From positions 1-64,000 of the forward strand of contig JACRIM010000014.1 of assembly GCA_016235815.1 (NCBI GenBank): a stretch of DNA of 64,000 bases, read 5' to 3'. The stretch is from Planctomycetota bacterium. GTDB lineage: Bacteria > Planctomycetota > Phycisphaerae > UBA1845 > UTPLA1. Numbering within the stretch: position 1 is the first letter of the stretch; each line of letters starts with the position of its first letter. Below, piece after piece: positions 31,115 to 46,417 of the stretch. The position numbers and the translations under genes were made by a program. A model generated the notes under the pieces. It was given only the letters and a program-made list of their open reading frames with translations. It did not search any database and was not told the DNA's origin.

Positions 31115-33004
31115 ATGAATCAACAACGCCTCTCCCCGGTGAACACCATTCAATCGGACATGATGCTGCCCGATGTGCTTCGGCGATTCCCGTTTCTCCG
31201 CGTCATCTTTGATCGCTACGGACTGCGCGGGTGCGGCGGACCGCATGGCCCGGCCGAATCGGTCGGGTATTTCGCCAAGGCTCACGGCGTGAATGAGGGG
31301 CTACTGCTCGATGAGCTCAATCGCGGCGTCGCCAATCCTGCGGCCGTCACACCCGTTGCCAACAGCCTGCCCAATGCACTCGATCAACTGGCGGACTCCA
31401 TCTACCGCCGTTTTTTCAAGGCCGGTGTAGTCGTCATCCTGACAGCCGGCGCGGCATGGGGAGCCCTGCTGCTCGTACGGATCGGGGTGAGCCACTCGTT
31501 CACCGCGATCTCCATCCACGACATTAACGCCCACGGCCACGCCCAGATCTTCGGCTGGGTCGGGTTATTTGTAATGGGGTTTTCGTATCAGGCATTCCCG
31601 CGCATGAAGCACACCAGCCTCAGCCGGCCCGACCTGGCAAACATGAGTTTTTATCTTATGGTGTTTGGTATTTTCGCTCGCGCCATCGGTGAGCCGCTGT
31701 TTGCGCTGCCGATGTTTCGCGAACTGGCCGTCGCCGCGAGTTTTGCCGAAATCGCGGCCATCGGCATCTTCGTCGGCGTACTGCTGACGACGTTATGGCG
31801 ATCCGGAAAACCGTTCGAACAACACGACTTCTACATCATTGCGGCCCTATTGTTCTTTTTTATGCAGGCGGTTTATGACCTTGGCCTTCTTTACGCGACA
31901 ACGGCGGCCATCACTCGTGAAGAGTTGTTGCGAATCATTGCGACCTATCAGGCGCCGCTTCGCGACCTGCAGATCCACGGTTTCGCAATGCTCATGATCC
32001 TCGGCGTTGGCGTGCGAATGTTTCCCGCACTCTTCGGCTTGGCCGCGCCCGGGCCCAAGCTGGTAAGAAACGCGCTCGTTTTGCTTGTTGTCGCCGTGAT
32101 CTGCGAGTCGGTTTTCTTCATCATCATGCGCCGGTCGGGTAATCACATCTGGGCGATTCCGCTCTACGCGTCCATGTTTGTTCTCGCCGGCACGAGCATC
32201 GCGCTGACCTTTCGCTGGGGCCTCCTTGCCCGCCCAACCGAACGGGACCGAAGCACAAAGTTCGTACGCATCGCGGTTGCGTGGCTCCATACCTCCATGA
32301 TCATGCTGGTCCTCGCCCCGCTTTATATGCGTGTCATTCTTCCGGCCGCTGCGACACTCTCAGAAAGCGGTCGCGCGGCGGCGAGTAGTGGGTTCTCTCA
32401 CGCCTATTACGGCTCCGTACGCCACGCTATTACGGTCGGTTTTATCAGCATGATGATCCTCGGCATGGCGGGGAAAGTCGTGCCTACACTGAACGGCGTG
32501 GACATTCGGCGTTTGCGACCATTGTGGGTGCCGTTTGCGTTCGTAAACGTCGGGTGCCTGATGCGTGTGAGCTTTCAGATTGCAACGGATTTCGGCGAAT
32601 GGGCCTACCCTATTGCAGGCGTCAGCGGACTGTTGGAACTGACCGGAATCGCCGTTTGGGGCATTCATCTTTGGCGAATCATGAACGGGTGGAAGCCCGC
32701 GGAGCTTGAGCCGTCGGGGCCGCCGACGCGAATCACCGCCGATGACAAGATCGGTTGGATCGTTGAGTGGTTCCCCCAGACACTTCCGCTTTTGATTGGC
32801 AAAGGGTTCGCGCCGCTCGCGAATCCGGTCATGCGCCGGACCATGGCCCGTGCGATTTCAGTACGCACAGCGGCTGAACACCACCACCTTGACTTGGAGT
32901 CGTTGCTCGCCGAACTAAACGCCGCCGCGTTCGAGGTGGACCGCCCAAGTACAGGTGGATCGAGAGGAACGAATTTCTCCTTACCGGTCATCAGCCATGC
33001 CTGA
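31115..33004 (+). CDS. NnrS-family membrane protein with N- and C-terminal accessory domains
   Basis: NnrS proteins protect against NO and nitrosative stress. The 629-residue protein begins with a ScdA_N/DUF542-like domain (about 15-75, with RYGLRGCGGPHGP), continues with about twelve membrane helices typical of NnrS (HDINAHGHAQIFGWVGLFVMG, about 130-150; a second HGFAM segment near 289), and ends with a DUF1858-like domain (about 545-610). Histidines facing the helices are candidate heme or metal ligands, as in the family. The next gene overlaps its end by 8 bases. Presence with qNor and HAO points to NO handling. Confidence 0.85.
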   Translation: MNQQRLSPVNTIQSDMMLPDVLRRFPFLRVIFDRYGLRGCGGPHGPAESVGYFAKAHGVNEGLLLDELNRGVANPAAVTPVANSLPNALDQLADSIYRRFFKAGVVVILTAGAAWGALLLVRIGVSHSFTAISIHDINAHGHAQIFGWVGLFVMGFSYQAFPRMKHTSLSRPDLANMSFYLMVFGIFARAIGEPLFALPMFRELAVAASFAEIAAIGIFVGVLLTTLWRSGKPFEQHDFYIIAALLFFFMQAVYDLGLLYATTAAITREELLRIIATYQAPLRDLQIHGFAMLMILGVGVRMFPALFGLAAPGPKLVRNALVLLVVAVICESVFFIIMRRSGNHIWAIPLYASMFVLAGTSIALTFRWGLLARPTERDRSTKFVRIAVAWLHTSMIMLVLAPLYMRVILPAAATLSESGRAAASSGFSHAYYGSVRHAITVGFISMMILGMAGKVVPTLNGVDIRRLRPLWVPFAFVNVGCLMRVSFQIATDFGEWAYPIAGVSGLLELTGIAVWGIHLWRIMNGWKPAELEPSGPPTRITADDKIGWIVEWFPQTLPLLIGKGFAPLANPVMRRTMARAISVRTAAEHHHLDLESLLAELNAAAFEVDRPSTGGSRGTNFSLPVISHA

Positions 33005-33773
33005 CATGTTGAGCCATCCGATGTTCGACGAAGTGGCGACGCGATACGATTGCCTTGTCGACTGGCCGAAGCGACTCGCGCGAGAGGGGCCTTTCTTCCG
33101 CGAACTTTTTCAGCGCCATGGCGTTCATCGTGTCCTCGATGTCGCGTGCGGAACGGGGCATCATGCGGCGATGTTTCATTCGTGGGGCCTGGATGTGGTT
33201 GGGACGGACATCAGTGCGGCCATGCTCGACGAATGCCGCCGATTGCATGGGACAAACGACCGGCTCCATTGGCAACAACGCTCGTTCACGGAGCCGGTTG
33301 TGCATGATCGCCCGTTTGATGCCGTGGTTTGTCTGGGCAATTCGCTTGCGTTGGCAGGCGATGCCCTGCGCATGGGAACTGCCGTCCAACAGTTGGTGAA
33401 ATCGTTGCGCCCGGGCGGAGCAGGGGTCATTCAGGTGCTGAACTTGCATGCGATCCCAGAAGGGCCAACCCGATGGCAGAAGGTGCAGCGAATCGACGAT
33501 CATGACCCTCCGACCGTCCTGCTTAAGGGTATTCATCGCGCAGCAGATCGGGGATTCGTCGAACTCGTGGAGCTTCGGCTTCCGGAATACGGCGTCGAAT
33601 GGCAGTCTCAATCGGCGTCATTCTGGGGAGTTGGTTCATCCGGCCTGTGTGAGATGGTTCGAGCGTGGGGCGGAGAAGTGGAAGGAATCTATGGCTCATA
33701 CAACCGCGACCGTTTCGATGAGACACAAAGCGCGGACTTGATCGCAGCGTGGTGGCGGGGGAGGTGCGGGTAG
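32997..33773 (+). CDS. SAM-dependent methyltransferase
   Basis: The 258-residue protein is a class I methyltransferase: VLDVACGTGHHAAMF (about residues 44-58) is motif I, VVGTDISAAMLDE (about 63-75) motif II, and FDAVVCLGNSLAL (about 100-112) the motif IV region. The start at 32997 lies inside the NnrS gene (8-base overlap), so the pair is translationally coupled; an ATG three codons later is an alternative. The substrate is unknown; small molecules or a quinone are possible for this family. Confidence 0.85.
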   Translation: MPDMLSHPMFDEVATRYDCLVDWPKRLAREGPFFRELFQRHGVHRVLDVACGTGHHAAMFHSWGLDVVGTDISAAMLDECRRLHGTNDRLHWQQRSFTEPVVHDRPFDAVVCLGNSLALAGDALRMGTAVQQLVKSLRPGGAGVIQVLNLHAIPEGPTRWQKVQRIDDHDPPTVLLKGIHRAADRGFVELVELRLPEYGVEWQSQSASFWGVGSSGLCEMVRAWGGEVEGIYGSYNRDRFDETQSADLIAAWWRGRCG

Positions 33774-33780
33774 ATTTCAC

Positions 33781-33824
33781 TTGACATACGGCGGAATTAT
33801 CAGACAATGGATATTCAAGTCGAG
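33781..33824 (+). promoter_or_regulatory. Promoter and candidate operator of the second Rrf2 gene
   Basis: TTGACA (33781-33786), 16 bases and GACAAT (33803-33808) form the promoter. GGATATTCAAGTCGAG (33809-33824) follows the -10 directly, which places it over the transcription start and ahead of the start codon at 33834. The same arrangement occurs at the five-heme cytochrome promoter, so autorepression is likely. Confidence 0.65.
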
Positions 33825-33833
33825 ATGTAACAT

Positions 33834-34262
33834 ATGTTGTCCATGACCGCCCAATACGCCTTGCGTGCTTTTGTGTATATCGCCGGCAAGGACGATAAGG
33901 AACCGGTCTTGGCCAAAGAGATCGCCGCCAAGACGGGCGTTCCACCGCATTATCTATCGCGAATCCTGCGGGATGCGGTGCGTGCGGGATTGCTGGATTC
34001 GGCCCGCGGCGTGGGGGGCGGATTTCGATTGTCGCGACCGCGGCACAAAATCCGTCTTTCCGAGATTCTTGCACCATTTGATGACATCTTAAGCAGGTCG
34101 AGCTGCCCCTTTGGCCAAGCCCAATGCAATGATCGTAACCCGTGTGGATTCCACGAGCATTGGAAGCCCATTGCGTCGTCGTACCTCAAGATGCTGGAGG
34201 AAACGACACTCGACAGCGTCGGCCCCGAGGGCCTGGGGAGCGGCCGGAAAGGCAGTCGCTAG
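33834..34262 (+). CDS. Rrf2-family Fe-S regulator with three cysteines (NsrR/IscR type)
   Basis: The 142-residue protein has the Rrf2 fold (MTAQYALRAFVYIAG, VPPHYLSRILRDAVRAGLL, GVGGGFRLSRP) and the complete cluster set Cys91-x6-Cys98-x5-Cys104 in CPFGQAQCNDRNPCGFHEHW. This is close to the spacing that holds an NO-sensitive Fe-S cluster in NsrR and the Fe-S cluster in IscR. It lies 80 bases before the gamma/alpha/beta oxidoreductase operon and shares a GATATTC-type element with that and other island promoters, which makes it the best candidate for the island's master regulator. Confidence 0.9.
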   Translation: MLSMTAQYALRAFVYIAGKDDKEPVLAKEIAAKTGVPPHYLSRILRDAVRAGLLDSARGVGGGFRLSRPRHKIRLSEILAPFDDILSRSSCPFGQAQCNDRNPCGFHEHWKPIASSYLKMLEETTLDSVGPEGLGSGRKGSR

Positions 34263-34342: not shown

Positions 34343-36085
34343 ATGCTCAGTGACAAGGCTCGATTAACACGTGTTACCGTGGTTGGCTCTCTTGCGGGCT
34401 TTCTTCTCTTGTTTGCGTGTGCTGCGCGGGCGCTAAACCCACAGCCCACCGCCGCTCCCAAAACGGCCGCGGTGCCTGACCAAGCGACTACATCAACCGT
34501 GACGCCGGCAACGTCGGTTGATTCGCCGATCGTCGCACGTGGTCAGGCGCTGTTTGCTCGACAGTGTGCGATCTGTCACGGCGAGGCGGGCGATGGCGCC
34601 GGAAAGTTTGCATATCTGATGAACCCGCGTCCCCGCAACTTCAAGCTCGGTAAGTTCAAACTCAGCACAACACAAAACCAAGTGCCATCCGATGACGACC
34701 TGATGCGAACGATCAGTCGAGGCATGCCCGGATCCGCCATGCCGCCGTGGGGACATCTCCCGATCGCCGATCTCCAGGCGCTCGTTCAATACGTTCGTCA
34801 AATATGGTCGGACGCGGTTCGTGCGGACCTGCAAAGTCAGGTCGCGGCGGGGGAGTTGAAGGGCGACGAGGTCTCCGCGCAACTCGCGACAGCGACCACA
34901 CCCGGTGCCCCGATTGTCGTTCCGCCGGAGCCGAAGGGCGATGATCTTCGCTGGTTCAACGGTCGCCGTGTGTATGTCGAGGCCTGTGCGTCGTGCCACG
35001 GTCAGGATGGGCATCCGGTTGCCGAAGCAGTCAAGTTTGACGACGAAGGGTTCCCCGATCCGCCACGGTCGTTTGTAAATGGGATCTTCAAGGGCGGAAT
35101 GGATGGACCGGGCCTTTATGCCCGCATTCTCAAAGGCATGCGCGGTACTCCGATGCCGGCTTCCGAAGGCAATTACTCGTCGGATGATGTCTGGGATTTG
35201 ATTCACTACGTGCAATCGCTGGCGCGATCCGGCTCCCAGGACCGCGCCCAACTCCGCCAGGGGACGATCAGCGCGCCGAAAGCGGCGGGGACGCTGCCTT
35301 CTGGCCCCAAGGACCCCGCCTGGAATCAGGCCCGAGCAACGTATGTCGCGATGACACCATTATGGTGGACGGACCATCGTGTCGAAGGATTGGTCGTACA
35401 GGCGATTCACAATGCGGATGAACTCGCCATTCGTCTGAGTTGGCTCGATCCCTCTCAGGATGACCGCGCCGTGCGGGTGGACGAATTCCGCGATGCCGTT
35501 GCGATCCAGTTTTCGATGTCAAGCGACCCGCCCTTCTACATGGGTGACGCACAACAGCATGGCGGCGTCAATATCTGGATGTGGAAAGCGGACCGTCAAA
35601 AGAACATCAATGAAGGATATCAGGATGTCGATGCCGCGTTTCCTCAGCGAGCGGTGGACATGTACGACGCGTGTCCGATTCGCGCGAAGGACATGAGCCA
35701 AGTGGATTGGCCGCATGGAAAGATTACCGAACACTTTTCACGGTACATCACGGCCTGGGGTGCGGGCAATCTTGTCGCCGATCCGAACCTGACGACCCCG
35801 GTTGAATGCCTCGTGGCTCGCGGCCCGGGCACACTGGCCGGCAAGCCTGCCAACGCACAACTGGTTAAAGGCCAGGCAGTGTACGAGCGCGGCATTTGGT
35901 CAATTCAGCTTCAGCGAACACTCGAACTACCGTGTCATCACGATCAACCCAATGCCGAAACGGATGAGCGCGTCTTTCGGCCCGGAGACTATCTGCCAAT
36001 TTCATTTGCGATTTGGGACGGCAGTGCGGGTGATCGCGATGGGAAAAAAAACATCAGCATCTGGCAGAAACTGGTGATTGAGTAA
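34343..36085 (+). CDS. nxrC: Gamma subunit: di-heme cytochrome c fused to ethylbenzene-dehydrogenase-type heme b domain
   Basis: This 580-residue exported protein has a signal peptide (about 8-30) and two cytochrome c domains with CAICH (Cys75) and CASCH (Cys215), each followed by a Met in GSAMPPWG and RGTPMPASE as axial ligand. From about residue 330 comes a domain like the gamma subunits of ethylbenzene dehydrogenase and Nxr, which bind heme b. It would carry electrons from the Fe-S beta subunit to cytochrome c or the membrane. It is first in the operon and precedes the catalytic subunit by 48 bases. The symbol is by analogy with Nitrospira/anammox Nxr. Confidence 0.85.
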   Translation: MLSDKARLTRVTVVGSLAGFLLLFACAARALNPQPTAAPKTAAVPDQATTSTVTPATSVDSPIVARGQALFARQCAICHGEAGDGAGKFAYLMNPRPRNFKLGKFKLSTTQNQVPSDDDLMRTISRGMPGSAMPPWGHLPIADLQALVQYVRQIWSDAVRADLQSQVAAGELKGDEVSAQLATATTPGAPIVVPPEPKGDDLRWFNGRRVYVEACASCHGQDGHPVAEAVKFDDEGFPDPPRSFVNGIFKGGMDGPGLYARILKGMRGTPMPASEGNYSSDDVWDLIHYVQSLARSGSQDRAQLRQGTISAPKAAGTLPSGPKDPAWNQARATYVAMTPLWWTDHRVEGLVVQAIHNADELAIRLSWLDPSQDDRAVRVDEFRDAVAIQFSMSSDPPFYMGDAQQHGGVNIWMWKADRQKNINEGYQDVDAAFPQRAVDMYDACPIRAKDMSQVDWPHGKITEHFSRYITAWGAGNLVADPNLTTPVECLVARGPGTLAGKPANAQLVKGQAVYERGIWSIQLQRTLELPCHHDQPNAETDERVFRPGDYLPISFAIWDGSAGDRDGKKNISIWQKLVIE

Positions 36086-36133: not shown

Positions 36134-39100
36134 ATGGCGTCGAACCAACGATTTGTACCCTCACGTCGCGAGTTCATTGAAGGGTCTGTGGTATTGGCGG
36201 CCGGCGCTTCCGGCGTCCTTGGCTGGCCGCTGAGAGCATTGGCTGCCCGGCCTGACGTTGCAAATCCTCTGGCGGGCTATCCGGCCCGCGGCTGGGAAAA
36301 GATCTACCGCGACCAATATGCCTACGACGGTACGTTTAGCTGGGTCTGCTCGCCGAACGACACCCATGCCTGCCGCGTATTGGCGTATACGCGAAACGGC
36401 GTCATCGTCCGCATGGGCGCTCAGTATGACATGGAAAAATACGCCGACCTCTATGGAAACAAGGCGACGGCGAATTGGAACCCGCGCCAGTGCGCGAAGG
36501 GGTACACCTTTCACCGATTGGTCTATGGTCCCTACCGTTTGAAGCATCCGATCATCCGCAAAGGGTGGAAGCAATGGGCCGATGACGGTTTTCCACCACT
36601 GACACCTGAAAACAAGACCAAATACAAGTTCGACAGCCGCGGCACGGATATCCATCTCAAGATCGACTGGGACAGCGCCCTGAAATACATCGCCAAAGCC
36701 TATGTGGCCATCGGAAAGCGCTACAGCGGCGAGGCCGGCGCGAAACTCCTGCGCGAGCAGGGGTACCCCGAGGAAATGATTCAGCCCATGGAAGGCGCGG
36801 GAACGCGCACCTTCAAGATGCGCGGCGGAATGGGTCTGCTTGGTGTGCTCGGCAAGTATGGCATGTACCGGCTGAACAACTCCATGGCCCTACTCGACAG
36901 CGCGATTCGCAAGGTCGGACCGGACAAGGCGAAGGCGGGGCGCAACTGGAGCAACTACACCTGGCACGGCGACCAAACACCCGGGCAGCCGTGGGTGCAC
37001 GGGTTGCAAAACTCCGACTGCGACTTCAACGACCTGCGTTTCAGCAAGCTCATCATCATGGACGGGAAGAACCTGGTGGAGAACAAGCTGCCGGATTCCC
37101 ACTGGTTCATCGAGTGCATGGAACGCGGCGGGCGTATCGTCGTCATTGCGCCGGAATACGGCGCGCCCAGTACCAAGGCCGACTATTGGATTCCGATTCG
37201 TCCGGCCACGGATGCCGCGCTCTGGCTCGGCATCACGCGCCTGATGGTCGACAACCACTGGTACAAAGACGAATTCGTGAAAGGCTTTACGGATTTCCCA
37301 TTGCTGGTGCGTACCGACACGCTCAAACGCCTGCGTGCGGAGGAGGTCTTCCCCAATTATGCCGGCGCGCTCGCCAAAGACGGCGCGAGCATGAAGATCC
37401 AGGGACTGACCACCGAACAGCATAAGAAAATCGGCGACCGAGTCGTATGGGACGCCAAAACCAAGAAGCCCGCGGCCATCACGCGCGACGATGTGGGCAA
37501 ACGAATGTCCTCAAAAGGGATCGACCCCGTCTTATCAGGTACGTGGAAACTAACGCTTGTCGACGGCAAGGAAGTCGAGGTCATGACGCTCTGGTCCATG
37601 TATCAGACGCATCTGAAGGACTATGACGTCGACAGCGTCGCGGAGATGACGCATTGTCCGAAGAACCTGATCGAGCAGCTCGCCAGGGACATCTGGGATA
37701 CGACCAAGGCCGGTGGACCGGTTGCGATCCATCAGGGCGAGGGCATCAACCACTGGTTCCACGCGACCGAAGCCAACCGCGCTGCGCTGCTGCCGATGCT
37801 GCTGACCGGCAACATTGGCCAACCCGGCGCCGGCGTCCACGGGTGGGCCGGCAATTACAAGGCCGCGCTTTTCCAGGGCAGCGCCGTCACCGGTCCGGGC
37901 TTCAAGGGTTGGGTGGCGGAAGATCCGTTTGAACCTGCGCTCGACGAAATGGCCCCGGGCAAGAGCGTTCATGCACATGCGTATACGAAGGACGAGGAAC
38001 CGGCCTATTGGAATCATGGCGACCGCCCGCTGATCGTCAACACACCGAAAGATGGTCGAAAGGTCTTTACCGGCAAGACGCACATGCCGACACCGACCAA
38101 GGCGTTGCACTTCACAAACGTCAATTTGTTTAACAACGCCAAGCATGCCTATGACATGTTCAAGAACGTGAATCCGAACATCGAGATGATCATCGCGCAG
38201 GATATCGTGATGACGTCGTCGGTGCAGTACTCCGACTTCGGATTGCCTGCGAATAGCTGGGTAGAGTTTGAAGACCTGGAAGTCACGGCGTCCTGCTCCA
38301 ATCCGTTCTTGCAAATCTGGAAAGGCGGCATCAAGCCCGTATTTGACTCTCGTGATGACCTTTGGATCCTCGCCAATGTCGCAAAGGCGGTGGGCGAGGA
38401 ACTCGGCGGCGAATGGAAGCAGAAATTCTACAACTACTTCAAGTTCGAGCACGAAAAGAAGCGCCGCGTCTACCTGCAACGACTTCTCGACACCTGTACC
38501 ACCACCATCGGTTACAAGCTCGATGACATCATGGCCGGAAAGTATGGACCGCCGGGCGCGGCGTTGATGCTTTTCCGCACCTACCCACGAATCCCGTTCT
38601 GGGAACAGGTGAACAAGGACGAGCCATTTTACACCGACACCGGCAGGCTTCATGCCTACGCCGACATTCCCGAAGCGCTGGAGTATGGCGAGAACTTCAT
38701 CGTTCATCGTGAAGGCACGGAGGCGACACCCTATCTGCCCAATGTGATTGTCTCCAGTAATCCTTACATTCGGCCCAACGACTATGGCATCAGTCCGGAC
38801 GCCGAGCATTGGGATGAACGAACGGTGCGTAACATCAAGCTTCCATGGCGTCAGGTGAAGCAGACCAAGAACTTCCTTTTTGAAAAGGGTTTCAAGTTCT
38901 ATGCGCTGACACCCAAGACGCGCCATCGCGTGCATTCATCGTGGAGCAACGTCGATTGGCACAACATCTTCGACAGTAGCTTTGGCGACCCGCACCGGAT
39001 GGACAAACGAGCCCCGTATGTCGGTGAACATCAAATGCACATCAACCCGCAAGCGGCGCGCGACCTGGGCATCAACAATGGCGACTTTGTTTATGTCGAC

Positions 39101-39646
39101 GCCAATCCAGCGGATCGCCCCTATGTCGGGGCAAAGCCAAACGACCCGTTTTACAAAGTCGCACGCTTGATGCTTCGGGCCGTTTACAACCCGGCGTATC
39201 CGTACAGCTGCATCATGATCAAACACGCCCCCTACATCGCAACGGAGAAAAGCGTAAAGGCTCATGAGACGCGGGCCGATGGGCGCGCCCTCTCCGATGA
39301 CGGGTACCAGGCCAACCTGCGCTACGGCTCGCAACAGAGTCTCACGCGCAATTGGCACATGCCCATGCATCAGACCGACAACCTCTTCCACAAAGCCAAG
39401 GCATTCATGGGCTTCATCTTCGGTGGCGAGGCTGACAATCACGCCATCAACACCGTGCCCAAGGAAACGCTCGTTCGTGTGGTCAAGGCCGAAGACGGCG
39501 GCCTCGGTGGAAAGGGGATCTGGCTGCCGGCGACAACCGGCATGTCCCCCGGCCAGGAAAGCGACATGATGAAACGCTACCTCGCAGGCGGCTTCATGGG
39601 CGGCGATGAATCGACCAGCACGCCGGCGAAGTTAGAGGAATTTTGA
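36134..39646 (+). CDS. nxrA: Catalytic molybdopterin subunit, nitrite oxidoreductase/nitrate reductase type (type II DMSO reductase family)
   Basis: The 1170-residue protein is the size of NxrA of Nitrospira and anammox bacteria. A Tat signal (SRREFIEGS, arginines 11-12) sends it to the periplasm. The FS0 region CSPNDTHAC (72-80) with Cys120 gives Cys-Asp-Cys-Cys instead of the His-Cys-Cys-Cys of NarG, as in periplasmic type II enzymes. YGNKATANWNPRQC and YTFHRLVYGPYRLKHP are typical Nxr stretches. The Asp expected to bind molybdenum is probably in NSDCDFND (about 295-302). It could oxidise nitrite or reduce nitrate; chlorate or selenate reduction by relatives cannot be excluded. GGAG lies 9 bases before the ATG at 36134, which decides the start over 36089. 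Confidence 0.92.
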   Translation: MASNQRFVPSRREFIEGSVVLAAGASGVLGWPLRALAARPDVANPLAGYPARGWEKIYRDQYAYDGTFSWVCSPNDTHACRVLAYTRNGVIVRMGAQYDMEKYADLYGNKATANWNPRQCAKGYTFHRLVYGPYRLKHPIIRKGWKQWADDGFPPLTPENKTKYKFDSRGTDIHLKIDWDSALKYIAKAYVAIGKRYSGEAGAKLLREQGYPEEMIQPMEGAGTRTFKMRGGMGLLGVLGKYGMYRLNNSMALLDSAIRKVGPDKAKAGRNWSNYTWHGDQTPGQPWVHGLQNSDCDFNDLRFSKLIIMDGKNLVENKLPDSHWFIECMERGGRIVVIAPEYGAPSTKADYWIPIRPATDAALWLGITRLMVDNHWYKDEFVKGFTDFPLLVRTDTLKRLRAEEVFPNYAGALAKDGASMKIQGLTTEQHKKIGDRVVWDAKTKKPAAITRDDVGKRMSSKGIDPVLSGTWKLTLVDGKEVEVMTLWSMYQTHLKDYDVDSVAEMTHCPKNLIEQLARDIWDTTKAGGPVAIHQGEGINHWFHATEANRAALLPMLLTGNIGQPGAGVHGWAGNYKAALFQGSAVTGPGFKGWVAEDPFEPALDEMAPGKSVHAHAYTKDEEPAYWNHGDRPLIVNTPKDGRKVFTGKTHMPTPTKALHFTNVNLFNNAKHAYDMFKNVNPNIEMIIAQDIVMTSSVQYSDFGLPANSWVEFEDLEVTASCSNPFLQIWKGGIKPVFDSRDDLWILANVAKAVGEELGGEWKQKFYNYFKFEHEKKRRVYLQRLLDTCTTTIGYKLDDIMAGKYGPPGAALMLFRTYPRIPFWEQVNKDEPFYTDTGRLHAYADIPEALEYGENFIVHREGTEATPYLPNVIVSSNPYIRPNDYGISPDAEHWDERTVRNIKLPWRQVKQTKNFLFEKGFKFYALTPKTRHRVHSSWSNVDWHNIFDSSFGDPHRMDKRAPYVGEHQMHINPQAARDLGINNGDFVYVDANPADRPYVGAKPNDPFYKVARLMLRAVYNPAYPYSCIMIKHAPYIATEKSVKAHETRADGRALSDDGYQANLRYGSQQSLTRNWHMPMHQTDNLFHKAKAFMGFIFGGEADNHAINTVPKETLVRVVKAEDGGLGGKGIWLPATTGMSPGQESDMMKRYLAGGFMGGDESTSTPAKLEEF

Positions 39647-39648
39647 TC

Positions 39649-39972
39649 ATGCCGTACGACGACCCTGATGCAACCGACCCGATGACGCTCACCGGCGTCG
39701 AAGTGCCCGTTGAGGATGACGGCGCCGTGCGCGACATGGCTGCCTGCTTTATCGAGGAGTATGTTCGACTGGGGCACGGCGCCGACGCCATCATGACCCT
39801 TTTCGCGTGCGGTGAGTTCGCCGGACCGACCATGGCGTTTCAGCAACTGGGCCGTCATTCGATTCAAGCGTTGATAGATGAGCAAGTGATGTTGCGCGGA
39901 CCGCGTGGGCCGCGCCTGCCGATCCACATGACTCCGGCCGGTGCACTGAGCCTGCCGGTCCTGGAAGGATAG
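39649..39972 (+). CDS. Small unknown protein between catalytic and Fe-S subunits
   Basis: This 107-residue acidic protein starts at the ATG two bases after the nxrA stop. It has no signal peptide and no cysteine cluster, only one or two single cysteines. The middle (about 30-75) looks helical (AACFIEEYVRLGHGADAIMTLF), and a short Pro/Arg stretch follows. It is inserted between the genes for two subunits that form one complex, with 9 bases to the next gene, so its product is probably needed in step with them, as a chaperone or small subunit. I do not recognise the family. Confidence 0.75.
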   Translation: MPYDDPDATDPMTLTGVEVPVEDDGAVRDMAACFIEEYVRLGHGADAIMTLFACGEFAGPTMAFQQLGRHSIQALIDEQVMLRGPRGPRLPIHMTPAGALSLPVLEG

Positions 39973-39981
39973 GAGCCGATC

Positions 39982-41259
<1,278 letters not shown>

Positions 41260-41997
41260 CACATCGACCGCGCGAGAGCGCGCCAAACTTGCCCGTTTCA
41301 TCGCTGCAATGCTCTGCGAGCCGTCACCTGCGTGCATCGACGATCTCGAACATCCGGCAATTCGAGACGAACTGCAGTCCGCGGCAATCGCGTTGGGGAT
41401 TCCGTCGCAATTGATTGAACGAGTATTCGAGGCGCATTCGATCACCGCTCGGGAGGAGTCGTTTGTCCGACTCCTCGGCCATACAGTGCGGAGCGAGTGT
41501 CCGCCTTATGAACTGGAATACAGGTCCGCGGAGGTATTTCAGCAGAGTCAGACACTGGCGGATATCGCGGGCTTTTATCGAGCATTCGGTTTCGACGCCT
41601 CAGGTCCTCTGACTGAGCGCGAGGATCATGTGGCGACTGAATGGGAGTTTCTCGCCGCGAATTCCATGTTGGAGTCGCTGGCTACGGACGAAGACCAGAT
41701 CGCTTGCTGCCGGGATGCGCAACGCGCCTTCTTGTCGGAGCACGCTGCCGGCTGGATGCCAGCCTTCTTTGAGCGGGTTCGACGTGCCGGCCCTGAGTCG
41801 TTTCTCGCGGAGATCGTCAATCTCGCGGAGGCCGTGTTGCGGAATTGGTGCAATACCGTGGGTGTCCTGGTTGGCCCGGCATGGCTGGAGCTGCGACCTG
41901 TTGATGAAGAGGACTCGACCATTACCTGCGGAGCGCCCGGCGCGGTCGAACTTGGCCCCACGCTTGCGGCTGCGATGGACGAGGGAGCTTGAGTGCT

Positions 41998-42921
41998 ATG
42001 TATCTGGGCGTCCAGCCAAACCTCATGGAACGTGTCGTCTTCGACACCGCGCGACATCAACCCGATTTCCGCTCGCAATACGAGCGACAATTCGCCGATT
42101 GCCACGAGCACCGCGAGCCGGCCCGTCGCGACCAGGCATTCGCAGAACTGCACGACCGGTGGTTTCGCGAGTTGGGCTATCGCGCAAGGTTTGTCGATTA
42201 CGCTGCTGCATTCCCTTTCATCAGCCGACTCGTAGATCGCCTGATGGTCACACAAGCTCCCGGTCCGCGCGATCAGACCATCGAATTGTTCGGAAAACCG
42301 GCGCAATACACGGTTGTCATGTCCGTTGCCCCGGCCGTGCTGCTGGATCTCCCTACTTTTGATTACTGGGCGCGGCACGAACTGCAGCACATCGACGACA
42401 TGCTGAACCCTGCGTTTGAGTTTGACAGCGCGAAGCAGCACCGGGGCGCAACCGATGCAGGCCGGAACCTCGCGCGTGACCGATACGCGGTTCTTTGGGC
42501 TGTGTCCGTGGACTCGCGGCTGGAGGCGTCGGGACATCTGCCTCAGGGCATGAGACAAAAGCGGTATGGTGAACTGTGTCGGGCATTCGGTCTTGTCGCC
42601 GAACCAACGGCGGCCATCGACCGGCTTTGGAAGCAGTGCGTATGCTCGCCGCCATCCCACCCGACGTTGCTCCAGTGGTCCGAACAAGGCCCTCCCGAAA
42701 TCGAATACGCCGGGGATGACCCCGCCCATGGCCGGAGTGGGCAACCATGCCCGCTTTGCGGTTTTCCGACGTTTGACTGGGGCGCGCCCTCGGTCGACGA
42801 CACCGGATTGAATTGCGCCATCATCGCAGATTTTCCTGGATGGAATTCGGAACAGGGTCTATGCAACCGATGTGAAGAGATTTATCGTGCCTGTGTTCCT
42901 GCACCGGTACGCGCAGGATAG
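41998..42921 (+). CDS. Unknown protein with HExxH motif and C-terminal zinc ribbon
   Basis: The 307-residue protein has no signal peptide. It contains HELQH (about residue 124, within ARHELQHIDDML), a match to the HExxH motif of zinc metallopeptidases, and a C-terminal treble-clef or ribbon-like pair CPLC (about 247-250) and CNRC (about 291-294). The start at 41998 follows the upstream stop by 5 bases. It lies between the chaperone and the small peptide and porin, in the Nxr-type operon. It could be a maturation protease or a metal-cofactor assembly factor. I do not recognise the family, and one short motif can occur by chance. Confidence 0.75.
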   Translation: MYLGVQPNLMERVVFDTARHQPDFRSQYERQFADCHEHREPARRDQAFAELHDRWFRELGYRARFVDYAAAFPFISRLVDRLMVTQAPGPRDQTIELFGKPAQYTVVMSVAPAVLLDLPTFDYWARHELQHIDDMLNPAFEFDSAKQHRGATDAGRNLARDRYAVLWAVSVDSRLEASGHLPQGMRQKRYGELCRAFGLVAEPTAAIDRLWKQCVCSPPSHPTLLQWSEQGPPEIEYAGDDPAHGRSGQPCPLCGFPTFDWGAPSVDDTGLNCAIIADFPGWNSEQGLCNRCEEIYRACVPAPVRAG

Positions 42922-42963: not shown

Positions 42964-43134
42964 ATGTTTCCCCCGTTTATTGATAGTTTTGGCGATCAGG
43001 CGTCGGCCGTGTTTATTAACACCATGGGCACCATCGTCGCGAGTTTTTTCAACACGATATTCGGAGCCTTCGTGAACTCCTTCCTCACTCCGCTGTTCAA
43101 GATTCTTGCAGTCGGAATCGGCGTAACTGCCTAG
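42964..43134 (+). CDS. Unlisted 56-residue amphipathic or hydrophobic peptide
   Basis: A short frame starting MFPPFIDSFG and ending VGIGVTA lies between the HExxH protein and the porin. AAGGAG stands 7 bases before the ATG, one of the better ribosome sites in the operon. The peptide is rich in Phe, Val and Ile, has no charged cluster, and could form one membrane helix or an amphipathic helix. Spacing is 42 bases from the upstream stop and 46 bases to the porin start. Family unknown. Confidence 0.65.
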   Translation: MFPPFIDSFGDQASAVFINTMGTIVASFFNTIFGAFVNSFLTPLFKILAVGIGVTA

Positions 43135-43180
43135 TTTGCCTTTTACAGTCCCCGGGGAGCCTGGAGAGGTAGGTGGATTC

Positions 43181-44680
43181 ATGCGGAGCCGAATGCTCGC
43201 GCGAATTGCATTGATCACCGCCATGACCTTAAACGTGGTGCGGCCGGAGAGTCGTGCCGACCAACCCACGTCTCAGCCAACGACGGCGCCCGCTGCGTCG
43301 ACCGTCAAGCCCGGCCCGAAGTACATGGCTTTGCGCTATAACGATGATTTTTCCTATCTGGACGGGCCCGAAGGTAGCTATGTCAAAGACTTCTTTGACC
43401 CCATCAAAAATATTCATCTTTCCAGGGACTGGACCCTGAGCCTCGGAGGCGAAGCCCGCGTCCGCATGGAGTCGGAGACCAATCGCAACTTCGGCACGCG
43501 CGATCCGACGAACGATACATTCCTTCTCCATCGCTACTTCTTGCACGCCGATCTGAAATATCGAAAACTCGCCCGAGTCTACGCGGAATTGGGCGATGTT
43601 CGCGTCGAGGATCGGGACCTGCCGCAGACCCCGGGAATGGAAAACACGTTTGACATCCACCAGCTCTTTGCCGACGTGAAGTTTCTCGGCGAAGAGGCGC
43701 CTCTCACGTTGCGCGTTGGTCGACAAGAAATGCTTTACGGGAAGGAAAGGCTGGTCAGCAAGCTCGATTGGTCGAATGAGACGCGCCGATTCGATGGCGT
43801 CAAACTCATGTATAGCACTCCCAAGTTTGACGTGGACGCCTTCTGGGTGAAGCCCGTGATGTTCTCGAACCGCCCATTCTCGAACCCCTGGAATACGCAC
43901 ATCAACGAGGGCATGAATCGAAAAATCGACCACTGGCGCGAGGAGCAAAACTTCTATGGGGTGTATTCAACGTATAAGGGAATTGCGAAACACGTCATCG
44001 ATCTGTACTTCCTTGGATTAAACGACCGCGGCATCTTCGTGAACGCCAATAACCGATTTGGAGACTTAAACGTCTATACCCTCGGCAGCCGCTTCGCCGG
44101 GACGAACGGCAACTGGGATTACGACATCGAAGGCGCCGGCCAATGGGGCAAATGGGTCGGCGATGAAGTCCACGCATGGATGATGGGCGCCGATGGAGGA
44201 TACACGTTCAAAAGTGTGGCCATGACGCCACGGCTCGGCGCAGGGTTTGATTTCGCCACCGGCGACGACACGCCACGCGACAATAGCCACGACACGTTTA
44301 ACCAGCTCTACCCACTCGGCCACGCGTACCTGGGGTATCTCGATGATGTCGCGAGGCAGAACATCATTGCTCCCAATCTGAATGCCAGCATCAAGCCACT
44401 CAAAGATGTGACGGTCAAGCTAAGTTGGTTCCATTTTTGGCTCGATTCAGAGCTCGATGCACTCTACAACGCGGGGGGGAATCCGATTCGGCGAAATGTA
44501 ACCGGCTCGTCGGGTAACGATGTAGGCGATGAGCTCGACCTCACGATTAATTGGCAGGTGGACACACACTCCGCCGTGCTCTTCGGCTGGTCTCATTTCT
44601 GGCCGAACAACTTTATTGAAACGTCGGGGCGAAGTCAGGATGCGGATTACATTTACTTGCAATACGCCTTTAAGTTCTGA
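43181..44680 (+). CDS. Outer-membrane beta-barrel porin (alginate-export family type)
   Basis: The 499-residue protein has a signal peptide (about 1-25), a Pro/Thr linker, and then an alternating hydrophobic pattern of beta strands ending in YIYLQYAFKF, whose terminal Phe is typical of barrels. SLGGEARVRMESETNRNFG, RVGRQEMLYGKERLV and RFDGVKLMYS are like the alginate_exp family. It may let nitrate, nitrite or other ions reach the periplasmic enzymes. AGGTGG lies about 5 bases before the start at 43181. It follows the small peptide gene in the same direction. Confidence 0.85.
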   Translation: MRSRMLARIALITAMTLNVVRPESRADQPTSQPTTAPAASTVKPGPKYMALRYNDDFSYLDGPEGSYVKDFFDPIKNIHLSRDWTLSLGGEARVRMESETNRNFGTRDPTNDTFLLHRYFLHADLKYRKLARVYAELGDVRVEDRDLPQTPGMENTFDIHQLFADVKFLGEEAPLTLRVGRQEMLYGKERLVSKLDWSNETRRFDGVKLMYSTPKFDVDAFWVKPVMFSNRPFSNPWNTHINEGMNRKIDHWREEQNFYGVYSTYKGIAKHVIDLYFLGLNDRGIFVNANNRFGDLNVYTLGSRFAGTNGNWDYDIEGAGQWGKWVGDEVHAWMMGADGGYTFKSVAMTPRLGAGFDFATGDDTPRDNSHDTFNQLYPLGHAYLGYLDDVARQNIIAPNLNASIKPLKDVTVKLSWFHFWLDSELDALYNAGGNPIRRNVTGSSGNDVGDELDLTINWQVDTHSAVLFGWSHFWPNNFIETSGRSQDADYIYLQYAFKF

Positions 44681-44749
44681 GTTATGCACGATCCAATCGC
44701 TACAACGCACAAAGTCAGAAGCGATCGCCGTGAGTTCGGAGCCGCACAG

Positions 44750-45763
44750 ATGCTTAAACGTGGGGGCGTCCACCAAGCCGTTCGTGAAGGAACACTAGTC
44801 GACGGGTGCGGCCGCAGAATTGATCACTTGCGACTATCCGTAACCTCGGCCTGCAACCTGCGATGCCTCTATTGCCGCCCGAAGGGGACAATCGATCCAT
44901 TCACAAGCGCACCGGTTCTGGATGACGCCCAACGCCTTGAGCTTATCCAGCACCTGTATGAAACCTATTATCTGCGCCAACTCCGACTGACCGGTGGCGA
45001 GCCGCTCCTCCATTCAACGTTGGTTTCGCTTATTCAGGGAATCCGACGCATCGCACCGGACCTTGACCTGGCGATGACGACGAATGGGTGGCGATTGGCG
45101 GACTTGGCTCGTCCGCTGCTGGACGCCGGCTTGAACCGTGTCAACGTCTCCCTCGACACGCTCGACCCGGCGCAATATCGCCATCTCACCGGCGGAGAAT
45201 TGGCCCCAGTTCTTGATGGGATTGAGCGGTGTATGGCCGTCGGTTTTCCGCCTCCGCGGATAAATGCAGTCGTCCTCGCCGGTGTCAATGATCATCAACT
45301 CGTCGATTTGGTCGAATGGTCGATGCAACAGGGCACGGAGATTCGATTCCTCGAGGCCATGCCGATCGGCCCGGCAGCGAGCTTTAATCGGGACCGATTC
45401 GTGAGTGCCGCGACGATTCGGCACGCGCTTTCTCGCCGTTTCGAGCTGGTTCCACTTCATCGAAACCATGGTGAAACGGCGGTCCGCTACCTCGCGGTCC
45501 ATGGTGGTCAGCGAGGCATCGTCGGAATCATCGCCCCGGTTTCCGAACGCTTCTGCGGACAATGCCGCCGCATGCGCATCACGGCCGACGGTCGCCTGTT
45601 CCCATGCTTGTTGGATGAACGGAATGTAGATCTGCGAACCGCATGGCGTCATGGTGTGTTTTCTCCGGACACCGTGGATGATGTCGTCCAGTCGGCGGTG
45701 GAGGCGAAACAGTGGCAGGGCCCTGCGCTTCAACCGACGGCGATGGTGCAACTCGGAGGGTAG
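44750..45763 (+). CDS. moaA: GTP 3',8-cyclase MoaA (molybdenum cofactor synthesis)
   Basis: MoaA is the radical-SAM enzyme that starts molybdopterin synthesis from GTP. The 337-residue protein has the radical-SAM motif CNLRCLYC (about 36-43), LTGGEPLLH (about 80-88), the C-terminal cluster cysteines in FCGQCRRM and LFPCL, and the ending GG needed for activity. The start at 44750 is preferred over 44684 because GGAG lies 8 bases upstream and the length then fits the family. It serves the adjacent molybdenum enzyme, so cofactor synthesis travels with the island. Confidence 0.93.
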   Translation: MLKRGGVHQAVREGTLVDGCGRRIDHLRLSVTSACNLRCLYCRPKGTIDPFTSAPVLDDAQRLELIQHLYETYYLRQLRLTGGEPLLHSTLVSLIQGIRRIAPDLDLAMTTNGWRLADLARPLLDAGLNRVNVSLDTLDPAQYRHLTGGELAPVLDGIERCMAVGFPPPRINAVVLAGVNDHQLVDLVEWSMQQGTEIRFLEAMPIGPAASFNRDRFVSAATIRHALSRRFELVPLHRNHGETAVRYLAVHGGQRGIVGIIAPVSERFCGQCRRMRITADGRLFPCLLDERNVDLRTAWRHGVFSPDTVDDVVQSAVEAKQWQGPALQPTAMVQLGG

Positions 45764-45778
45764 CCCGGGGTCTGACCC

Positions 45779-46417
45779 ATGCTTTGTCCGCTTGACACAA
45801 TTTCGGGCAGAAGCCGCCGATTGTCGGGAGCCGTGCTCGTCGGCGGAGCAAGTCGGCGGATGGGGAGGCCCAAGGCTCAGCTTCCGTATAAGAACCGTTC
45901 TTTTCTTGAACAGATCCTGGTGACAATCCGGCCCTTTGTTGGGCAATTGGTGGTGGTTGGCGGCGCAACGAGAGAAGAAGCACTTCGCGGAGTCGGCGCA
46001 GAGACTCGCGCGAACGTCGAATGGATTCCCGATGTCGTCGCTCAGGCCGGTCCGCTTGCAGGAATCGTCGCGGCATTGCAACACGACCGGGAGAGCGATT
46101 GGCTGTGCATTGCCTGCGACATGCCGTTGATTGAGCGTGCCGCCGTGCGATGGCTGGTCAAACAATACCGCAAATGCAATACGGATGTTGTTGCCGCTCG
46201 CCGAGCCGATGCATCCGCCCCGGAACCATTTCCGGCAATCTACTCGCGTACGACGTTGCGATCCTTGTACAGCGCGCTGACGTCGCCCTCTCACGGTCTC
46301 CGATCGGCCATGGAACAATTGAGCTGTTGGACCCCCTTGGTCCCGACCGAGTTCACAGACTCGTGGTCAAATATCAACACGCTGGCCGATTATTCTCTTC
46401 TGGGCCAATTGCGCTAA
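45779..46417 (+). CDS. mobA: Molybdenum cofactor guanylyltransferase MobA
   Basis: MobA adds GMP to molybdopterin, giving the bis-MGD form used by DMSO-reductase-family enzymes such as NxrA. The 212-residue protein has the nucleotide-binding loop VGGASRRMGRPKA (about 21-33) and CDMPLI (about 112-117) for the metal. It starts 15 bases after moaA. The N-terminal 16 residues before the first strand are longer than usual, so the true start may be slightly downstream. It is the last gene that clearly belongs to the island. Confidence 0.92.
   Translation: MLCPLDTISGRSRRLSGAVLVGGASRRMGRPKAQLPYKNRSFLEQILVTIRPFVGQLVVVGGATREEALRGVGAETRANVEWIPDVVAQAGPLAGIVAALQHDRESDWLCIACDMPLIERAAVRWLVKQYRKCNTDVVAARRADASAPEPFPAIYSRTTLRSLYSALTSPSHGLRSAMEQLSCWTPLVPTEFTDSWSNINTLADYSLLGQLR

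What the first reader, a model, noticed from the sequence alone, without database searches (positions are those of the whole stretch)
41998..42921. Unknown protein with HELQH and a C-terminal zinc ribbon in the Nxr-type operon
It carries both an HExxH motif and two CxxC pairs and is placed straight after the TorD-like chaperone. No maturation factor of this kind is known to me for Nxr. It may be a protease or metal carrier for assembly of the complex.
Basis: partly seen in the sequence, partly recalled or inferred. Interest (0 to 1): 0.65.

Follow-up and report, generated by a model that had tools for sequence, protein, structure and literature searches.

The report
Nitrite-oxidase operon protein resembling a protease
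A protein of unknown family, encoded next to the genes for the enzyme that turns nitrite into nitrate in many bacteria including anammox bacteria, is predicted to fold like a zinc protease, but many of its relatives have lost the protease-type motif, so it more likely helps build the enzyme than cuts proteins.

Summary
Window 41998-42921 (+) encodes a 307-aa protein with HELQH (residues 127-131) and two CxxC pairs (251/254, 289/292), 5 nt after a TorD-like chaperone gene in an nxr operon. No Pfam or NCBIfam family matches it.

It is not an oddity of this genome. Homologues occur in nxr operons of anammox-type bacteria, other Planctomycetota and many other phyla. In 392 same-phylum genomes, 53 of the 56 with NxrA at 60% identity or more have it; other Nxr lineages lack it.

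AlphaFold2 gives a confident model (pLDDT 92). Its best structural neighbours are zincins, the HExxH metallopeptidase fold, though at Z below 8.

The protease reading fails as a family-wide function. HExxH is intact in only 71 of 109 homologues and changed about ten times on the NxrB tree. R162 and W167 are invariant and D134 nearly so, and one degenerate pair is under purifying selection.

Best reading: a cytoplasmic, clade-specific NXR maturation factor working beside TorD, with a zincin-derived, often degenerate core and a zinc ribbon; comparable in role, not in family, to FdhE. Partner and assembly role are inferred. A 'putative zinc finger' protein in NXR clusters was noted in 2013 (PMC3578206), probably this family.

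The parts
41998..42921 (+). the protein in question: zincin-like domain plus C-terminal zinc ribbon, 307 aa, no signal peptide or membrane helix
   Evidence: ORF; AF2 model pLDDT 91.9; maximum 19-residue hydropathy 1.2
41998..42717 (+). zincin-like domain, about residues 1-240: beta strands 79-86, 94-98, 104-110, HExxH helix 118-136, long helix 153-177
   Evidence: AF2 and DSSP; fold comparison
42376..42390 (+). HELQH, residues 127-131 (intact in 71 of 109 homologues)
42397..42399 (+). D134, conserved in 108 of 109 also where HExxH is lost
42481..42498 (+). R162 to W167 in the helix after HExxH; R162 and W167 invariant in 109 of 109
42748..42873 (+). zinc ribbon CPLC (251-254) ... CNRC (289-292); four Cys in 90 of 109 homologues
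41243..41992 (+). TorD/NarJ-like chaperone gene, neighbour and probable partner
   Evidence: PF02613 E 4.7e-20; adjacent in 72 of 91 homologous loci
39982..41259 (+). NxrB-like iron-sulfur subunit
39649..39972 (+). small unknown operon protein (107 aa) between nxrA and nxrB
36134..39646 (+). NxrA-like molybdopterin subunit with an N-terminal Tat motif (SRREF)
   Evidence: PF00384; N-terminal alignment
34343..36085 (+). NxrC-like gamma subunit fused to two cytochrome c domains
   Evidence: PF13442 and PF09459

Best explanation
The protein is a dedicated, cytoplasmic maturation or assembly factor for one large clade of nitrite oxidoreductases. Its core is a zincin-type (metallopeptidase-like) domain reused as a protein-binding scaffold, often with a degenerate active site, and its C-terminal ribbon presumably holds a structural zinc. 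It most likely acts with the adjacent TorD chaperone on apo-NxrA (or the NxrA-NxrB pair) before export by the Tat pathway, and is not part of the finished enzyme. Shown: the gene and motifs, operon linkage, cytoplasmic-type sequence, predicted fold, conservation pattern and repeated loss of HExxH. Inferred: physical partner, timing, the effect on cofactor insertion or proofreading, and that the ribbon binds zinc.
For: Co-occurrence: in 392 same-phylum genomes, 53 of 56 with NxrA at 60% identity or more have it, against 3 full-length hits elsewhere. In 61 close relatives, 19 of 19 with NxrA at 79% or more have it. Of 91 homologous loci, 84 hold NxrA or NxrB; 72 have TorD next door on the same strand, and others have NxrA or the gamma gene (part of these loci were chosen through NxrB). 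In G020 TorD and this protein stand together with no NxrA found. It diverges at about the rate of TorD and 3.5-5 times faster than NxrB in most pairs tested (dN 0.34 vs 0.35 vs 0.11; 0.37 vs 0.37 vs 0.11). HExxH is intact in 71 of 109, while R162, W167 (109 of 109) and D134 (108 of 109) stay. HExxH needs at least 10 changes on the NxrB tree. A pair with neither HExxH nor ribbon has dN 0.05, dS 0.45. Purified Kuenenia NXR holds only kustd1700, 1703 and 1704, plus 1705 in tubules (PMC8387239). By gene order in the probable anammox family f50, this protein and TorD correspond to 1701 and 1702, which are not named as parts of the mature complex. NxrA carries a Tat motif. moaA and mobA of the molybdenum cofactor pathway lie downstream in the window.
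Against: No interaction or mutant data exist. Several Tat-exported Nxr groups lack the protein (20 loci with full context), so it is not needed for Nxr assembly in general. HExxH is intact in the window's copy and in all anammox-type copies examined, so catalysis there is not excluded. The fold assignment rests on Z below 8. The kustd1701 correspondence is by gene order only.
Confidence: 0.6

Rival explanations
1. In lineages that keep HExxH it is an active zinc metallopeptidase that trims or removes an NXR component or a misassembled precursor; in the others the activity was lost.
For: HExxH sits in a helix after a beta sheet, as in zincins. Stand-alone paralogues of about 210 aa keep HELMHxxD in 6 of 6, and their model also matches zincins: Wss1, M1 aminopeptidases, YbeY, selecase. 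HExxH is intact in all anammox-type copies examined.
Against: 38 of 109 homologues lack one or more of H127, E128, H131, including close relatives of the window's species; four Chloroflexi copies keep both His but have Ala for Glu. No conserved third zinc ligand is evident beyond D134. No cleavage site is known.
Confidence: 0.2
2. It is a metal or iron-sulfur carrier: the ribbon or the His-Glu-His-Asp patch delivers zinc, iron or molybdenum to the complex.
For: The four Cys are kept in 90 of 109. FdhE, the nearest functional analogue, is described as iron-binding through CX2C motifs (PMC10609526).
Against: At least eleven copies with room downstream lack the ribbon, and the other candidate site is degenerate in about a third.
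Confidence: 0.1
3. It is a regulator or general quality-control protein that only travels with the operon.
For: Zinc ribbons often bind nucleic acid (general knowledge); the gene position in the operon varies.
Against: The link with one Nxr clade across many phyla is tight, and no DNA-binding family was found.
Confidence: 0.07

Closest known systems
'Putative zinc finger' protein of the NXR clusters of Kuenenia, Nitrospira and Nitrospina (Lucker et al. 2013, PMC3578206)
   Same: Same operon neighbourhood (NXR subunits, TorD), zinc-binding Cys. By gene order in anammox-type genomes probably kustd1701 in Kuenenia and scal00864 in Scalindua.
   Different: The passages read give one phrase and no function; the zincin-like domain, its degeneration and the wide distribution are not described there.
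FdhE (formate dehydrogenase accessory protein, PF04216)
   Same: Cytoplasmic accessory protein of a Tat-exported molybdoenzyme, with CxxC metal sites, acting beside a second chaperone.
   Different: No sequence match; four CX2C motifs in FdhE against two here; no zincin-like domain is described for FdhE.
TorD/NarJ/DmsD chaperones (PF02613)
   Same: Probable role in molybdoenzyme maturation; encoded next door; similar rate of change.
   Different: No match to PF02613; different predicted fold.
SprT/SPRTN zincins (PF10263) with C-terminal zinc-binding part
   Same: HExxH domain followed by a Cys-based zinc site; SPRTN (6mdx) is among the structural matches, Z 4.5.
   Different: Only 1 of 34 members scores at all (E 0.014); no conserved third His; HExxH often lost.
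Zincin metallopeptidases at large (M61, M1, Wss1, selecase, YbeY fold)
   Same: Predicted fold and HExxH position.
   Different: Active-site residues not conserved; Z at most 6.8.

Membership tests
Zincin metallopeptidase (HExxH, clan MA type) | zincin fold with HExxH in the active-site helix | tested here: inconclusive
   AF2 pLDDT 91.9; HExxH in helix 118-136 after three strands. The best VIA matches are zincins (M61 Z 6.8, M1 Z 6.0, 4l7a Z 5.7), but Z is below 8. The paralogue's matches are nearly all zincins, Z up to 6.0.
Zincin metallopeptidase (HExxH, clan MA type) | H, E and H of HExxH conserved in the family | tested here: not met
   71 of 109 homologues intact; H127 81, E128 103, H131 95
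Zincin metallopeptidase (HExxH, clan MA type) | conserved third zinc ligand and peptidase activity | tested here: inconclusive
SprT/SPRTN | match to SprT-like PF10263 above its cut-off | tested here: not met
   No hit for the window protein; 1 of 34 members at E 0.014; no SprT match in the window's genome
FdhE | match to FdhE domain PF04216 | tested here: not met
   No member of A1 matches; the family search finds nothing in the window's genome
FdhE | accessory role for a periplasmic molybdoenzyme, not part of the final enzyme | not testable with these tools
   Consistent with genetic linkage and with the composition of purified NXR (PMC8387239)
TorD/NarJ chaperone | match to PF02613 | tested here: not met
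   No match; the neighbouring gene matches instead
NXR-cluster 'putative zinc finger' protein (PMC3578206) | located in the NXR cluster beside TorD, with Cys zinc-binding motif | tested here: met
   anammox-type order gamma-NxrB-TorD-this-NxrA fits kustd1704-1700
NXR-cluster 'putative zinc finger' protein (PMC3578206) | sequence identity with the protein meant in that paper | not tested

The most novel reading that the evidence does not exclude
A zincin-type protease fold was recruited as a non-proteolytic, dedicated assembly chaperone for nitrite oxidoreductase: a new fold class among redox-enzyme maturation proteins, working as a pair with TorD and convergent with FdhE.
Probability: 0.45. 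Interest if true: 0.65.

Novelty: new variant of a known kind. Interest (0 to 1): 0.5.

Why it matters
NXR makes nearly all biological nitrate and is central to anammox and nitrification, but how it is assembled and exported is little known, and complete recombinant NXR would need its maturation genes. A dedicated, uncharacterised factor that follows one large NXR clade across many phyla is a concrete candidate for a missing assembly component. It also gives a testable case of a protease fold turned into a non-catalytic helper, with natural variants that already suggest which residues matter (R162, W167, D134) and which do not (HExxH, and in some lineages the ribbon).

Tried and rejected
Family-wide protease: rejected because HExxH is lost repeatedly. 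SprT and FdhE membership: rejected on profile searches. Pseudogene reading of the degenerate copies: argued against by dN/dS of 0.11 in the L057/L120 pair. Missing ribbons as frameshifts: no ribbon was found downstream in any frame, though 3 of the 15 copies checked end at a contig end and one more (L068) lies close to one. A scan of genome contigs with the single protein found no relative, and one with the alignment A1 could not be run; an NxrB alignment was used instead. A column comparison of Nxr subunits with and without the protein gave three insertion or deletion differences and one residue in NxrA and none in NxrB or TorD, but these follow the phylogeny and are too weak to name the partner.

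Full report
OBSERVATION. The ORF 41998-42921 (+) is real: 307 aa, HELQH at residues 127-131, CPLC at 251-254, CNRC at 289-292, starting 5 nt after the stop of a TorD/NarJ-like gene. Shuffling the protein gives HExxH together with two CxxC in 0.05% of cases. No Pfam or NCBIfam family matches at E<=1, and the family profile finds no PDB sequence. It has no signal peptide-like start and no hydrophobic helix, so it is taken as cytoplasmic (inference). Its genome holds a single copy.

SURROUNDINGS. The window holds a gamma subunit with two cytochrome c domains and an ethylbenzene-dehydrogenase-type domain (34343-36085), NxrA with an N-terminal SRREF Tat motif (36134-39646), a 107-aa unknown (39649-39972), NxrB (39982-41259), TorD (41243-41992), this protein, an alginate-export-type porin (43136-44680), then moaA and mobA (44684-46417). 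So molybdenum-cofactor genes lie beside it.

DISTRIBUTION. A search of 392 genomes of the phylum found homologues at 24-36% identity in 62, the strongest of them full length. The same set searched with NxrA gives 56 genomes at 60% identity or more. Of these 53 have this protein, and the three without it (G267, G236, G037) were not followed further. Twelve genomes with NxrA at 53-58% and eighteen at 39-43% have no full-length copy (compared by hand). Among 61 close relatives, all 19 genomes with NxrA at 79% or more have it, and three with 62-65% do not. Eighty NxrB loci from named genomes show it in operons labelled Verrucomicrobia, Acidobacteria, Omnitrophota, Hydrogenedentota, Desulfobacterales, Methylomirabilota, Rokubacteria, KSB1 and some Chloroflexi. 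It is absent from 20 loci with full context: Pirellulaceae-like Planctomycetota, Betaproteobacteria, other Chloroflexi and one Elusimicrobia. On the NxrB tree presence or absence needs 4 changes. It is therefore an accessory of one large part of the Nxr family, not of all Nxr.

OPERON ORDER varies while the link stays: gamma-NxrA-small-NxrB-TorD-this; gamma-this-NxrA-small-NxrB-TorD; and, in families f50 and f95, gamma-NxrB-TorD-this-NxrA. Of 91 loci, TorD is the direct neighbour in 72, and NxrA or gamma is the nearest gene in 13 more. The f50/f95 order fits kustd1704-1703-1702-1701-1700 in Kuenenia (PMC8387239) and scal00868-00863 in Scalindua, described as highly expressed (PMC3655542). That f50 and f95 are anammox families, and that kustd1701 and scal00864 are orthologues, is inferred from gene order. 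The purified Kuenenia NXR contained kustd1700, 1703 and 1704, plus 1705 in tubules; 1701 and 1702 are not named as parts: what one expects of maturation factors. Lucker et al. 2013 (PMC3578206) listed 'one putative zinc finger' protein among genes conserved in the NXR clusters of Kuenenia, Nitrospira and Nitrospina; this is most likely the same family.

FOLD. The AlphaFold2 model from 34 sequences has mean pLDDT 91.9: strands 79-86, 94-98 and 104-110, then helix 118-136 with HExxH, helix 153-177, more helices, and a C-terminal Cys ribbon. Foldseek finds nothing at E<=0.001. In the second look the best chains are zincins: M61 (7xyo, Z 6.8, rmsd 5.0, 153 residues), M1 (3cia, Z 6.0) and 4l7a (Z 5.7); SPRTN (6mdx) and YbeY follow at Z 4.5 and 4.4. 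Short stand-alone paralogues (about 210 aa, not in nxr operons; in two genomes beside mfd-like and surA-like genes) keep HELMHxxD in 6 of 6 and no ribbon. Their model (pLDDT 89.7) again matches zincins nearly throughout (Wss1 Z 6.0, M1 5.8, YbeY 5.4, selecase 5.3). All Z are under 8, so the fold assignment is a consensus of weak matches plus the motif position, not a proof.

CONSERVATION. In 109 homologues with a complete N-terminal domain, R162 and W167 are in 109, D134 in 108, E128 in 103, H131 in 95 and H127 in 81; full HExxH is in 71; the four ribbon Cys are in 90. Losses are scattered: at least 10 changes on the NxrB tree. They include the window's own family (G404, G393, G394), and four Chloroflexi copies that keep both His but have Ala for Glu. 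Copies without HExxH more often lack the ribbon (14 of 38 against 5 of 71, Fisher p 0.0003, not corrected for kinship and including a few copies cut by contig ends). A pair lacking both has dN 0.05 and dS 0.45, so these are not decaying genes. The protein diverges at about the rate of TorD in most pairs and 3.5-5 times faster than NxrB, as expected of a partner chaperone rather than an enzyme subunit.

MECHANISM. Most likely (0.6): a cytoplasmic, clade-specific NXR maturation factor, a zincin-derived scaffold with a zinc ribbon, acting with TorD on NxrA or NxrAB before Tat export. The role resembles FdhE, a CX2C protein needed for periplasmic formate dehydrogenases beside FdhD (PMC10609526). 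It is not an FdhE by sequence. Partner, timing and cofactor step are inference. An active protease in HExxH-intact lineages (0.2) and a metal carrier (0.1) remain open.

NOVELTY. The gene's presence in NXR clusters was known in one phrase; the zincin-like fold, wide but clade-bound distribution and repeated motif loss are, as far as the held literature shows, not described. It counts as a new variant of a known kind (redox-enzyme maturation proteins).

Noticed in passing
window 39649-39972; L105:9640-9984, L158:9733-10008: A 107-aa protein of no Pfam family sits between nxrA and nxrB in most non-anammox nxr operons, including those without the finding's protein; the profile detects none in the anammox-type operons.
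   Followed up: partly
L032:4141-4773, L080:11110-11703, L082:8050-8664, L087:1833-2438, L090:3887-4492: In family f95 (Scalindua-like order) a second, ribbon-only protein of about 200 aa, with a signal-peptide-like start in the one read in full (L032), lies between NxrB and TorD; its ribbon is a paralogue of the finding's ribbon.
   Followed up: partly
L063-L066, L069, L070: Stand-alone zincin-like paralogues of about 210 aa with intact HELMHxxD, no ribbon, not in nxr operons; in L064 and L065 beside mfd-like and surA-like genes. No Pfam family.
   Followed up: partly
window 42964-43134: Small hydrophobic ORF (56 aa, MFPPFIDSFGDQ...) with a good ribosome-binding site between the finding and the porin gene.
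   Followed up: no
window 44684-46417: moaA (radical SAM, Mob_synth_C) and mobA-like genes directly downstream of the nxr operon and porin.
   Followed up: partly
window 31115-34262: NnrS-like membrane protein and an Rrf2-type regulator just upstream of the nxr operon, candidates for NO or nitrite control.
   Followed up: no
L107: A contig titled Akkermansia muciniphila MAG holds a complete nxr operon; it groups with Verrucomicrobia by NxrB, and the species name is doubtful.
   Followed up: no
L073:5027-6789: TorD and the finding's homologue stand together beside a hemerythrin-like gene, with no NxrA found in that genome (91% complete).
   Followed up: partly
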